NCBI RefSeq assembly: GCF_025311495.1
Contig: NZ_CP104398.1
Span: 1,488,001 to 1,552,000, forward strand
DNA length: 64,000 bases
DNA from: Limosilactobacillus oris
GTDB taxonomy: Bacteria; Bacillota; Bacilli; Lactobacillales; Lactobacillaceae
Direction: 5' to 3'
Part shown: positions 6,899 through 12,143 of the stretch, one piece after another
How the letters are laid out: every line of letters begins with the position of its first letter
Position numbering within the stretch: the stretch's first letter is position 1
Notes under the pieces: model-generated
Seen by the model: the letters and a program-made list of their open reading frames with translations, nothing else
Databases searched by the model: none
Told to the model about the DNA's origin: nothing
Translations under genes and position numbers: made by a program

Positions 6899-8155
6899 AT
6901 GGCAGGACAAGTAAACGTGTTAGTAGTTGGCGAAGGTGGTCGGGAGTTTGCGATTGCTAAGAAGCTCCAGGAGAGTCCCCATGTCAAGCAGGTGTACTGC
7001 GCGCCCGGCAACGTGGGGATGCCGACCGTCGGCGTCCAACCGGTGGCGATTGCAGAAACCGACTTTGCGGGGCTAATCAAGTTTGCCAAAGAGCACGCGG
7101 TGGCCTGGACCTTCGTTGGCCCTGAAGACTGCCTGGTCGACGGGATCGTGGATGACTTCGCGGCGGCCGGCTTAAAGGCATTTGGCCCCAACGCCCGGGC
7201 CGCCCAGCTCGAGGGCTCCAAGGATTACGCCCTCAACTTCATGAACAACTACGGGGTACCGACTGCCCGCCATGCCTCCTACCGGGACCAGACCGCGGCC
7301 CTCGCGGAAATCGACCAGTTTGGCTTTCCACTGGTAATCAAGGAAAACGGTCTAGCGGGTGGCAAAGGGGTTGTGATCGCCCAGGACCACGCCACGGCTG
7401 TTCAGACGGTCAAGGAGATGTTTGCCAGCGGCCAAGCCCGGCTGGTGCTGGAAGAATGCCTGGTTGGTCCGGAATACTCGATGTTTGTCCTGCTGAGCAA
7501 TGGTCACTACCGGATCCTGCCGATGGCCCAGGACCACAAGCGGGCCTATGATGGTGATAAGGGACCGAATACCGGCGGCATGGGCGCGTACAGTCCGCTG
7601 CCCCAGCTGAGTGCTGCGGACCGCCAGGCGATGGTTGACCAGGTAGTCGTGCCCACGGTTAATGGTCTGGTGGCTGGTGGCTACCACTACCACGGCATTC
7701 TCTACATCGGCCTGATTATGACGGCTACCGGTCCGAAGGTGATCGAATATAACGTCCGCCTGGGCGATCCCGAGACCCAGGTGATCCTGCCCCGGCTGCA
7801 GACCGACCTCTTTGAGCTGGTTGACCGGGCGTTAAACGATCAACCATTGCCAGAAGTGGTCGAGGACCCGCGGGCCAGCTTCGGGGTGGTTCTGGCGTCG
7901 CAGGGCTACCCGCAAAAGCCGGTCCACGGCCAAGCCCTTGGCAAGTTCCCGACCGCGGCTGGGGTTGAGATCGACTATGCCAACGTGGCGGGCAGCCTTG
8001 CCGATTTGCGGGGAGCTGGTGGCCGCCTGCTGATGGTGCTGGCCCAAGCTGATTCCCTCGCGGTTGCCCATGACCGCGTCTACGACTACCTAGCGGCACT
8101 GGATGAGCCGGAGTGCTTCTACCGGACCGACATTGGTGCGAAGGCGGGATTATAG
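6899..8155 (+). CDS. purD: Phosphoribosylamine-glycine ligase PurD (GARS)
   Basis: 418 residues. It joins glycine to phosphoribosylamine with ATP. The N-terminus NVLVVGEGGREFAIAKKL is the usual GARS nucleotide-binding start, and the ATP-grasp core shows KENGLAGGKGVVIA, MGAYSP and EYNVRLGDPETQ. ATG 6899 follows GAGGAGA. It is the last gene of the purine operon: an intrinsic terminator follows 13 bp after the stop. Confidence 0.97.
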   Translation: MAGQVNVLVVGEGGREFAIAKKLQESPHVKQVYCAPGNVGMPTVGVQPVAIAETDFAGLIKFAKEHAVAWTFVGPEDCLVDGIVDDFAAAGLKAFGPNARAAQLEGSKDYALNFMNNYGVPTARHASYRDQTAALAEIDQFGFPLVIKENGLAGGKGVVIAQDHATAVQTVKEMFASGQARLVLEECLVGPEYSMFVLLSNGHYRILPMAQDHKRAYDGDKGPNTGGMGAYSPLPQLSAADRQAMVDQVVVPTVNGLVAGGYHYHGILYIGLIMTATGPKVIEYNVRLGDPETQVILPRLQTDLFELVDRALNDQPLPEVVEDPRASFGVVLASQGYPQKPVHGQALGKFPTAAGVEIDYANVAGSLADLRGAGGRLLMVLAQADSLAVAHDRVYDYLAALDEPECFYRTDIGAKAGL

Positions 8156-8167
8156 CTGATAACTTGC

Positions 8168-8212
8168 AAAAGCGTCCGAACGCTGCATGAGAGCAGCGGT
8201 TGGCCGCTTTTT
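8168..8212 (+). terminator. Intrinsic terminator of the purine operon
   Basis: An imperfect stem pairs AAAAGCG..AACGCTGC with GCAGCG..CGCTTTTT, ending in a T run, right after purD. It closes the purQLFMNHD transcript. Confidence 0.8.
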
Positions 8213-8224
8213 GAGTTCCATAAA

Positions 8225-8905
8225 TAAAAAAACTCCAGAGTTTGGTTAAGGCCAGCCTCTGGAGGCTTGTTTGTATGAACAGCGGGATGATGACAGTAAA
8301 CACCTCATCCCTAACTTAAACTTTTGCAACTATTGAGAAATCGCTGTTGAAGAAACCATTGGACGCACTAGTCAGGCCAGTGGGCAAACTATGCGGTAAG
8401 GTGAGAAGTTAACTCCAGAATAAGAAAATCCCTTACCGCGTTAGCTAGCTGGGGAATGTGAACCCGAAAATTAGGGCGGGCTCGTTCAACTAGCTATGTG
8501 AAATGATAGATGTGTGTTGTGACAGTATGCATCTTAAATAAGGCTCGCAAATTTAGAAGTACTTTTAGCTGTTAGAGAGCCTTACTAGTTTTCCAATGGG
8601 CAACTAGACAACGGCTAATATTTAGCCCATCCGGTCTCAGCATTAAAACTCAAATCGGATTAATTACGGTGAAGCTGGTAAGCGTATGTCAGTCTTACCA
8701 CAACTATTAAGCGTTACCTGCCATGAATAGCTAAACCGCACCTGCTTATTCCTGCTAGCAAGCTGATTTAGCTGCTCATAACCAAGGAGACTAGATTCGC
8801 CTGTAACCATCAGGCGGCGATGCTTTTCTCATGCTCCTGCTATGAGGTCATTTTAGGCAATCGGACAGGAGCACGAGGGTGACCAGCTGGGCTAATTTAG
8901 GGGTT
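8225..8905 (-). ncRNA. Candidate large structured non-coding RNA (about 650 nt)
   Basis: No credible protein gene lies between purD and gpmA, yet at least eight perfect long-range stems of 6-9 bp do: 8393-8401/8431-8439, 8442-8448/8490-8496, 8539-8546/8577-8584, 8596-8601/8625-8630, 8676-8682/8694-8700, 8729-8735/8767-8773, 8798-8803/8811-8816 and 8832-8839/8866-8873. The last becomes a continuous 13-bp helix (8828-8840/8865-8877), and the third a 10-bp helix, only if G-U pairs of the minus-strand RNA are allowed; one stem (8393) favours plus. A stem at 8233-8264 followed on the minus strand by TTTTTTTATTT is an intrinsic terminator for that strand. Size matches the GOLLD/ROOL class of giant phage-linked RNAs, but I cannot confirm family membership. 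No tmRNA or RNase P signature is present. Confidence 0.5.
8233..8264 (-). terminator. Minus-strand intrinsic terminator after the candidate large RNA
   Basis: CTCCAGAG at 8233-8240 pairs with CTCTGGAG at 8257-8264; on the minus strand the hairpin is followed by a seven-T run. It faces away from purD, so it must end a leftward transcript from the 8.3-8.9 kb region. Confidence 0.6.
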
Positions 8906-8910
8906 CGCTA

Positions 8911-8939
8911 TTGGATTTTATTGGCGAATGGATTAAAAT
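8911..8939 (+). promoter_or_regulatory. Promoter of gpmA
   Basis: TTGGAT (8911-8916), 17-bp spacer and TAAAAT (8934-8939), about 55 bp before the gpmA start. Matches the housekeeping sigma consensus moderately well. Confidence 0.5.
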
Positions 8940-8993
8940 AATATAGTAATGCTAACCATAGCGACTATTTAAGAAGAAAGAGGTCAATTGAAC

Positions 8994-9680
8994 ATGGCTA
9001 AATTAGTACTTATCCGTCACGGTCAAAGTGAATGGAACCTGTCAAACCAATTCACTGGTTGGGTTGATGTGGACCTGAGCGAAAAGGGTGTTGAACAAGC
9101 AAAGAACGCTGGTAAGGCCCTGAAGGAACACGGCATTGAATTTGACTACGCCTACACTTCTGTTTTGAAGCGGGCCATCAAGACTTTGCATTATGCTCTG
9201 GAAGAATGTGATCAACTCTGGATTCCTGAAACCAAGACTTGGCGTTTGAACGAACGTCACTACGGTGCTTTGCAGGGCCACAACAAGAAGAAGGCTGCTG
9301 AAAAGTACGGTGACGAACAAGTTCATATTTGGCGTCGTTCATACGATGTTTTGCCACCACTGCTGAGTGCTGATGACGAAGGTTCTGCTGCTAACGACCG
9401 TCGTTACGCTAACCTGGACCCACGGACGATTCCTGGCGGTGAAAACTTAAAGGTGACCCTGGAACGGGTTATCCCATTGTGGCAAGACGAAATTGCTCCA
9501 AAGCTGCTTGACAACAAGAACGTTATCATCGCAGCCCACGGTAACTCCCTCCGTGCTTTGAGCAAGTACATCGAACAGATTTCTGACGAAGACATCATGA
9601 ACCTGGAAATGGCTACTGGTCAGCCAGTCGTTTACGACTTCGATGACAAGCTCAACGTCTTGAGCAAGGAAAAGTATTAA
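8994..9680 (+). CDS. gpmA: 2,3-bisphosphoglycerate-dependent phosphoglycerate mutase
   Basis: 228 residues. It interconverts 3- and 2-phosphoglycerate in glycolysis. [15 protein letters not shown] contains the phosphohistidine RHG motif; ERHYGALQG and [12 protein letters not shown] (second catalytic His) complete the active site. ATG 8994 follows AGAAAGAGG; an in-frame TTG at 8988 is less well placed. Codon use differs slightly from the purine genes, as expected for a highly expressed gene. Monocistronic, with its own promoter and terminator. Confidence 0.97.
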
Positions 9681-11022: not shown

Positions 11023-11061
11023 CTCCGTCGACGCGTAGCTGCATTTTTATCTTTCGCCGTT

Positions 11062-12125
11062 TGTAAAATTAAGTTAGAAAAATAAAAAAGCCATTTGTGA
11101 TAGACTTTTGAATAACCACAAACAAAAGTAAAGGAACATCACAAATGACTTATAAACATCTTACCACACGTGAACTAACCCTCATAGCTAATTTTTGGCA
11201 CCAAGGTACGAAGGCTTATCAAGCTGCTAAACTGCTTAAACGAAGCCAAGAAACTATTTACCGAGTCTATCGATTTCTTGATAGCGGTAAGACCATTGCA
11301 CAGTATCTTAAGGCTTACCAGCGGAATAAGCAGCGTTGTGGTCGTAAGCAGGCTTAGCTAGCCAAGGATGAGATCAGCTACATCAATGAGCAGGTTAAAG
11401 CGGGCTGGACACCTGATACGATCATTGGTCGAGCAGAACGGACAATTAGCTGTAGTATGCGGACACTTTATCGGATGTTTGCTCGTGGACAGTACAATTT
11501 TGCCGTCCAGCAATTACCGATGAAAGGCAAGCGACACCCCAATGGCTATGTCGAACGACGTGGTAAGGCGGGGCATCTCGGTCGGAGTATTTACCAGCGA
11601 TACCATGATTTTCCTCACTACCAACACGAGTTTGGTCACTTTGAAGCTGATACTGTTCAAGGAAAAGCTCATCGTGGTGCGGTCATGACCTTGGTGGAAC
11701 GTCAATCTAAGGTGATGATTGTGCTTAACGTTCATCGTAAAACTGATGAAGCAGTTAACTATCACTTGGATAAATGGCTTTCTAAAATGCCTCGTCATTT
11801 CGTTAAGTCGATTACCTTTGATAATGGTAAGGAATTCGCGGGCTGGCGTGAGATTGCCAATAAACATGACCTTCATACTTATTTTGCGGAGGTTGGAGCG
11901 CCCAATCAACGCGGCCTGAATGAAAACAATAATGGTATCTTACGTCGTGACGGTCTCAGTAAACGATTAGACTTCCGTAATTTACCAGATGAACTAATCA
12001 CCCAGCTGATGCACAAACGAAATACTATTCCACGGAAGTCACTTCACTACCGCACACCACTTGAAGTATTCCTAAGTCACGTCACAGATGAACAGCTTTC
12101 AACATTTTTCTAATTTAAATTGACA
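11062..12125 (+). mobile_element. IS30-family insertion sequence with disrupted transposase
   Basis: Imperfect inverted repeats of about 22 bp bound the element: 11,062-11,083 and the reverse complement of 12,104-12,125 (18 or more matches). Length about 1,064 bp is normal for IS30. It sits between the DUF975 gene and a terminator, so it probably separated them. A target duplication is not clear. Confidence 0.8.
11145..12113 (+). pseudogene. IS30 transposase interrupted by an in-frame TAG
   Basis: The N-terminal helix-turn-helix part (70 codons, RKQA) ends at TAG 11,355-11,357; the same frame then continues LAKDEISYINEQVKAGW and runs to 12,113. The catalytic part is intact: FEADTVQGK, TFDNGKEF and NQRGLNENNNGILRR supply the DDE triad. 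The stop could be a CAG-to-TAG change. A downstream ATG at 11,457 would give only the catalytic half, so the product is probably inactive on its own. Confidence 0.85.
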
Positions 12126-12143
12126 TTTCGGGTTTAAAATAGC

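What the first reader, a model, noticed from the sequence alone, without database searches (positions are those of the whole stretch)
8225..8905. Possible giant structured non-coding RNA between purD and gpmA
About 650 bp with no gene contains at least eight perfect stems of 6-9 bp, arranged as separate domains. Two extend to 10 and 13 bp only with G-U pairs of the minus-strand RNA, and a minus-strand intrinsic terminator sits at its 3' side. Length and Lactobacillales host fit GOLLD or ROOL, which are usually found near tRNAs or in prophages, not between housekeeping genes as here.
Basis: partly seen in the sequence, partly recalled or inferred. Interest (0 to 1): 0.8.

Follow-up and report, generated by a model that had tools for sequence, protein, structure and literature searches.

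The report
Cut-off giant RNA beside lost half-TnpB
Between two housekeeping genes of a Limosilactobacillus close to L. oris lies the surviving tail of a long folded RNA that is in no database; in two relatives the whole RNA lies directly behind a gene for half of TnpB (the ancestor of Cas12, here without its cutting domain) and near a surface-adhesin gene, which suggests an undescribed RNA-protein system that this strain has mostly deleted.

Summary
The 8225-8905 gap has no gene, has significantly more perfect stems than shuffled sequence, and ends in a strong minus-strand terminator. It is not GOLLD or ROOL: Rfam shows nothing on either strand.

Relatives explain it. L. oris DSM 4864 carries 8247-8820 at 97% identity plus 5.8 kb more. 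There the RNA is about 1 kb long and lies directly downstream, on the same strand, of a 201-codon gene for the N-terminal half of TnpB (WED-REC lobe, no RuvC), followed by lrgAB and a Rib/LPXTG adhesin. A second Limosilactobacillus genome has, at another chromosomal site, a 42%-identical half-TnpB, an ~830-nt structured RNA behind it, and a Rib/LPXTG adhesin beside it. The half-TnpBs are under strong purifying selection. The two RNAs share a weakly similar, co-linear, partly covarying core. No other copy was found in the Lactobacillaceae genomes sampled.

So the window holds the 3' ~595 nt of the RNA. A deletion at a GCGGC microhomology took its 5' part, probable promoter and the half-TnpB. 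It is probably a relic here. The intact system looks like a new variant of domesticated TnpB. Expression, RNA-protein binding and function are untested.

The parts
6899..8155 (+). purD, upstream neighbour
   Evidence: ORF 418 aa; in many Limosilactobacillus its ORF ends only about 90-130 nt before gpmA
8168..8211 (+). purD terminator
   Evidence: inverted repeat I1 followed by T run
8226..8271 (-). intrinsic terminator at the 3' end of the minus-strand RNA
   Evidence: CTCCAGAG...CTCTGGAG then TTTTTTT read on the minus strand; in DSM 4864 it is interrupted by an IS-like junction
8226..8820 (-). surviving 3' part of the long structured RNA; 5' end cut at 8814-8820
   Evidence: 8247-8820 is 97% identical to L. 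oris DSM 4864 L031:29-609, where the noncoding stretch continues to about L031:1240; stem excess
8497..8722 (-). core shared with the second species (L116:793-1012 minus)
   Evidence: co-linear similarity; model R1 fits all three copies, the fit of its own members being by construction
8629..8660 (-). conserved hairpin (AUCCG-A-UUU ... AGA-C-CGGAU) with a compensatory C-G to U-A change and a conserved A.C mismatch in L116
   Evidence: alignment A4, helix 3
8814..8820 (.). deletion junction, GCGGC microhomology; 5,775 bp present in DSM 4864 are missing here
   Evidence: L031:603-607 and L031:6378-6382 carry the same GCGGC
8821..8905 (.). gpmA-side remnant, not part of the RNA
   Evidence: aligns with L031 6384 to about 6525, downstream of the adhesin gene
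8994..9680 (+). gpmA, downstream neighbour
   Evidence: ORF 230 aa, 100% identical protein in DSM 4864

Best explanation
The element is the 3' ~595 nt of a long structured noncoding RNA transcribed from the minus strand and ended by its own intrinsic terminator. In relatives the intact RNA (about 1 kb in L. oris DSM 4864, about 0.8 kb in genome G026) lies immediately downstream of, and on the same strand as, a gene for a RuvC-less half of TnpB, near a Rib/LPXTG adhesin gene. In this strain a 5.8-kb deletion removed the RNA's 5' part, its probable promoter, the half-TnpB, lrgAB and the adhesin, so the remaining RNA is most likely an orphan relic. Proposed mechanism of the intact system: the WED-REC lobe, which in TnpB and Cas12f holds the guide RNA, binds the long RNA as a nuclease-free ribonucleoprotein that regulates its neighbourhood, most plausibly the adhesin. 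Shown here: homology, order, strand, selection on the protein, deletion. Inferred: transcription, RNA-protein binding, target, function (the coupling of RNA and half-TnpB alone I put at about 0.4).
For: Homologous and longer in DSM 4864. Half-TnpB: 34-36% identical to the N-terminal half of a full TnpB and ending just before RuvC-I; its AlphaFold model's top matches are Cas12f and TnpB N-lobes (Foldseek E 1.5e-4; Z 12.9, rmsd 3.0 over 171 residues). The two half-TnpBs are 42% identical with saturated synonymous divergence (pS 0.88, pN 0.39), both ending at the same point: a selected protein, not a fresh fragment. Both have a gene-free stretch of about 830-1,200 nt directly behind, same strand, and a related adhesin nearby (35% over 160 aa, E 1e-17), at different chromosomal sites. 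RNA cores: co-linear blocks with shuffle p of about 0.004 and 0.014, 7 of 37 pairs changed on both sides, consensus fold better than column-shuffled (6/200 for the core, 0/200 for the larger block). Over 574 nt the RNA differs by 2.1%, against 8.5% at fourfold sites of neighbouring genes (p 6e-8) and 8.8% in the adjacent intergenic stretch. No remnant of the C-terminal half of TnpB in the stretch. Minus-strand promoter-like site L031:1047-1019 is absent from the window.
Against: Only three copies, two of them near-identical. RNA similarity to the second species is short and partly chosen after the fact; real genomic slices reach a similar score in about 1 of 200 trials. Folding-energy z-scores are matched by about a tenth of control slices. 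The slow divergence could reflect recombination: fourfold divergence in gpmA and the next gene is low too (1-4%). Of the 12 changes between the two near copies, 3 break pairs of the predicted fold. No transcript data. No guide-like 3' end or target match was found, so an omegaRNA-like role has no direct support.
Confidence: 0.6

Rival explanations
1. A long structured RNA unrelated in function to the half-TnpB (an RNA-only ornate RNA, in the manner of GOLLD and ROOL) that merely shares a mobile cassette with it.
For: RNA and protein are separable: the window keeps RNA sequence without the protein. A promoter-like site precedes the RNA in L031. No guide-like end and no target match.
Against: In both intact loci the RNA lies directly behind the half-TnpB on the same strand, at unrelated chromosomal sites; TnpB-type proteins commonly take their RNA from exactly this position (general knowledge).
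Confidence: 0.2
2. The RNA fragment in this strain is still a working RNA (for example a regulator or an antisense leader to gpmA), not a relic.
For: Terminator and stems intact; 2.1% divergence against 8-10% at neutral-like sites.
Against: 5' half and candidate promoter are gone, and no promoter-like site is left on the minus strand.
Confidence: 0.12
3. No RNA gene at all: decayed DNA, for example of a transposon, with chance stems and conserved only by recent common descent.
For: 97% identity is close to that of whole flanking genes (96.5-97.8%); folding energy not exceptional.
Against: Stem excess, similar co-linear core with compensatory changes in a second species, no coding remnant of TnpB and no similarity in phage or plasmid collections.
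Confidence: 0.15

Closest known systems
TldR (TnpB-like nuclease-dead repressors; PMC13418256)
   Same: TnpB-derived protein without nuclease activity expected, structured RNA encoded directly downstream, stable link to a non-transposon surface-structure gene (adhesin here, flagellin there)
   Different: TldRs arose by inactivating the RuvC nuclease domain and use a guide with complementarity to the target; here the whole RuvC/TNB half is missing, the RNA is about 0.8-1.2 kb, and no guide match was found
TnpB with omegaRNA (IS200/IS605, IS607)
   Same: N-terminal WED-REC lobe by sequence and predicted fold; RNA on the same strand behind the gene
   Different: no RuvC, no zinc finger, no guide found, RNA several times longer than a usual omegaRNA (general knowledge) and ended by an intrinsic terminator
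GOLLD and ROOL RNAs (PMC12286853)
   Same: hundreds of nucleotides, highly structured, found in Lactobacillales
   Different: no covariance-model match; not near tRNAs or in phage; linked to a half-TnpB gene in relatives
ROOL-class lncRNA of Ligilactobacillus salivarius (PMC5643018, PMC12286853)
   Same: long noncoding RNA of about 520 nt in a lactic acid bacterium
   Different: no match to the ROOL model and no nucleotide match in the plasmid collection

Membership tests
GOLLD / ROOL | match to the family's covariance model | tested here: not met
   cmscan up to E=10 on window and L116, up to E=5 on L031, both strands: no such match
GOLLD / ROOL | frequent context near tRNA islands or in phage/prophage | tested here: not met
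   only tRNA of the window is at 19.2 kb; flanked by purD and gpmA; no phage match
GOLLD / ROOL | homo-oligomeric RNA complex | not testable with these tools
   needs biochemistry or cryo-EM
TnpB / omegaRNA system | WED-REC RNA-binding lobe | tested here: met
   half-TnpB of L031 and L116 by sequence and predicted fold; the gene is absent from the window genome
TnpB / omegaRNA system | RuvC nuclease and zinc-finger (TNB) domains | tested here: not met
   ORFs stop before RuvC-I; no C-terminal remnant; no TNB-domain gene elsewhere in genomes G020 and G026
TnpB / omegaRNA system | structured RNA directly downstream on the same strand | tested here: met
   L031 20-1240 and L116 650-1480
TnpB / omegaRNA system | guide at the RNA's 3' end | tested here: inconclusive
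   3' ends are hairpins plus terminator; only chance-level matches elsewhere in locus or genome
TldR | RuvC domain present but catalytically dead | tested here: not met
   RuvC is absent altogether
TldR | stable association with a non-transposon gene | tested here: met
   Rib/LPXTG adhesin in both intact loci
TldR | RNA-guided repression of a target promoter | not testable with these tools
   needs binding or expression data

The most novel reading that the evidence does not exclude
A domesticated TnpB that has shed its whole nuclease half and works as a WED-REC-only partner of a kilobase-scale structured RNA, controlling a surface adhesin: an RNA-protein system in which the RNA, not the protein, is the larger part.
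Probability: 0.25. Interest if true: 0.85.

Novelty: new variant of a known kind. Interest (0 to 1): 0.6.

Why it matters
Known exaptations of TnpB, as far as the papers read here tell, keep the RuvC fold even when it is dead. A long-selected TnpB half without RuvC, with a long RNA where the omegaRNA would be, would show that the RNA-binding lobe can be domesticated alone, and would give a genetically simple pair in which a giant ornate RNA has a protein partner. Most giant bacterial RNAs still lack a function and a partner. It also warns that a structured gap in one strain can be the tail of a deleted system.

Tried and rejected
GOLLD, ROOL or any Rfam family: no match. Decayed coding sequence: full TnpBs give no C-terminal match in the stretch; six-frame reading shows only short open stretches. 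Phage or plasmid origin by nucleotide similarity: none; half-TnpB in viral contigs: none; plasmid hits that carry an annotation are TnpB/transposase genes. More copies: protein searches of about 400 family and 395 order genomes gave no further half-TnpB outside two Limosilactobacillus genomes, other hits being full TnpBs or cut or short frames. The RNA model gave the three known copies and only chance-like hits; the best of these, in genome G004, lies behind a Clp-ATPase gene and aligns over 118 nt mostly by deletions. A 20-base core motif with 3 mismatches was noise. RNA core not found behind full-length tnpB genes. Complementarity between RNA and adhesin region: chance level. Folding-energy z-scores were dropped as main evidence after the control slices. 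Aligning the RNAs with lenient gaps gave meaningless end-to-end alignments.

Full report
Observation. The gap between purD and gpmA (8156-8993) holds no ORF of 50 aa or more except one mechanical minus-strand ORF that overlaps its left edge. Perfect stems exceed dinucleotide shuffles clearly (10 against 3.2 of at least 6 bp; 7 against 1.2 of at least 7 bp; none of 60 shuffles as high; controls at expectation). A minus-strand terminator (CTCCAGAG, 16-nt loop, CTCTGGAG, seven T) ends it at 8226. Folding energy is better on the minus strand, but control slices of this window show that energy alone does not discriminate, so I do not lean on it.

Known families. cmscan found no GOLLD, ROOL or other large-RNA family in the window, in the DSM 4864 locus or in the second locus, even at permissive E-values.

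Relatives. Many Limosilactobacillus species examined have purD ending about 100 nt before gpmA, so the gap is an insertion. L. oris DSM 4864 (L031, named through L033) has 8247-8820 at 97% identity, its flanking genes being 96.5-97.8% identical. It carries 5,775 bp more between window positions 8820 and 8821, bounded by GCGGC at both ends: further noncoding sequence, then on the minus strand a 201-aa ORF, lrgB and lrgA, then on the plus strand an 825-aa Rib/LPXTG protein.

The half-TnpB. The 201-aa ORF has no Pfam hit but is 34% identical to the N-terminal half of a full TnpB found in another Limosilactobacillus genome and stops before RuvC-I. A second such ORF, 193 aa and 42% identical, occurs in genome G026 (L116), at another chromosomal site, with an ArsR-like regulator gene on one side and a long Rib/LPXTG adhesin on the other. 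Synonymous sites are saturated (pS 0.88) while pN is 0.39, so both lineages kept the protein. AlphaFold (mean pLDDT 66, two sequences only) gives a WED-REC-like lobe whose best matches are the N-lobes of Cas12f and TnpB (Foldseek E 1.5e-4; Z 12.9 over 171 residues). Cas12f structures in that list include second protomers of which only about 200 residues are modelled (8dzj_B, 7wju_B), a suggestive parallel. No TNB-domain gene exists elsewhere in G020 or G026.

The RNA in the second species. Behind the G026 half-TnpB, on the same strand, lie about 830 nt without a gene, ending in a strong terminator. Window and DSM 4864 RNAs share with it a co-linear core: one block with shuffle p of about 0.004, a second block downstream at nearly the same spacing with p 0.014, and a hairpin with a compensatory change and a conserved A.C mismatch. 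In the consensus structure 92% of cells pair and 7 of 37 pairs change on both sides, against 0 to 2 for slid controls; the structure was derived from the same three rows, so this leans towards it. Column-shuffled alignments fold as well in 6 of 200 (core) and 0 of 200 (larger block) cases. This is moderate evidence, since there are effectively two lineages.

Selection. Window and DSM 4864 RNAs differ at 12 of 574 sites (2.1%), against 87 of 1,021 fourfold sites in neighbouring genes (8.5%; p 6e-8) and 12 of 136 in the adjacent intergenic stretch. Constraint is the simple reading; local recombination is the alternative.

Polarity. Because the second species has half-TnpB, RNA and adhesin together, the window arrangement is best read as a deletion, which also removed the best minus-strand promoter-like site near the RNA (L031:1047-1019; none left in the window). 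In DSM 4864 the RNA's terminator is itself split by an IS-like junction.

Spread. Among 397 Lactobacillaceae and 395 Lactobacillales genomes sampled (overlapping sets), half-TnpBs of this kind appear only in these two loci, and the RNA model finds only the three known copies.

Mechanism. WED-REC is the part of TnpB and Cas12f that holds the RNA scaffold (established knowledge). The simplest proposal is a nuclease-free ribonucleoprotein. TldRs offer the nearest precedent: TnpB relatives with inactivated RuvC that act as RNA-guided repressors next to flagellin genes (PMC13418256). Here no guide or target was found, so regulation of the adhesin is a guess from neighbourhood alone.

Verdict. In this strain it is most likely a relic; the interest lies in the intact system of the relatives.

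Noticed in passing
L116 2285-2061 (minus): The half-TnpB gene of the second species has a promoter-like site and, just before its start, a terminator-like hairpin (GGGGAG...TCCCC followed by TTTTTT), as in attenuated leaders.
   Followed up: no
L031:1-28 and L032:4512-4536: In DSM 4864 the contig ends at the RNA's terminator carry AAGTATACAG(A/G)T inverted ends, which suggests an IS inserted into the terminator.
   Followed up: partly
window 11054-12133: About 1.08 kb absent from DSM 4864 with a split transposase frame (70 aa and 218 aa), IS30-like by eye.
   Followed up: no
G000:C1:342325-342525 (L226): The window genome holds one full-length TnpB-family gene (395-aa frame, TNB domain), unlike G020 and G026.
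   Followed up: no
L227:13885-14775: An ArsR-like regulator (296 aa, by eye) lies at the 3' side of the RNA in the second species, which makes it another candidate partner or target.
   Followed up: no
L031:984-1013: Near-palindrome TATAATACAAAATTAGTATTTTGTATTATA at the probable 5' end of the intact RNA, possibly an operator.
   Followed up: no
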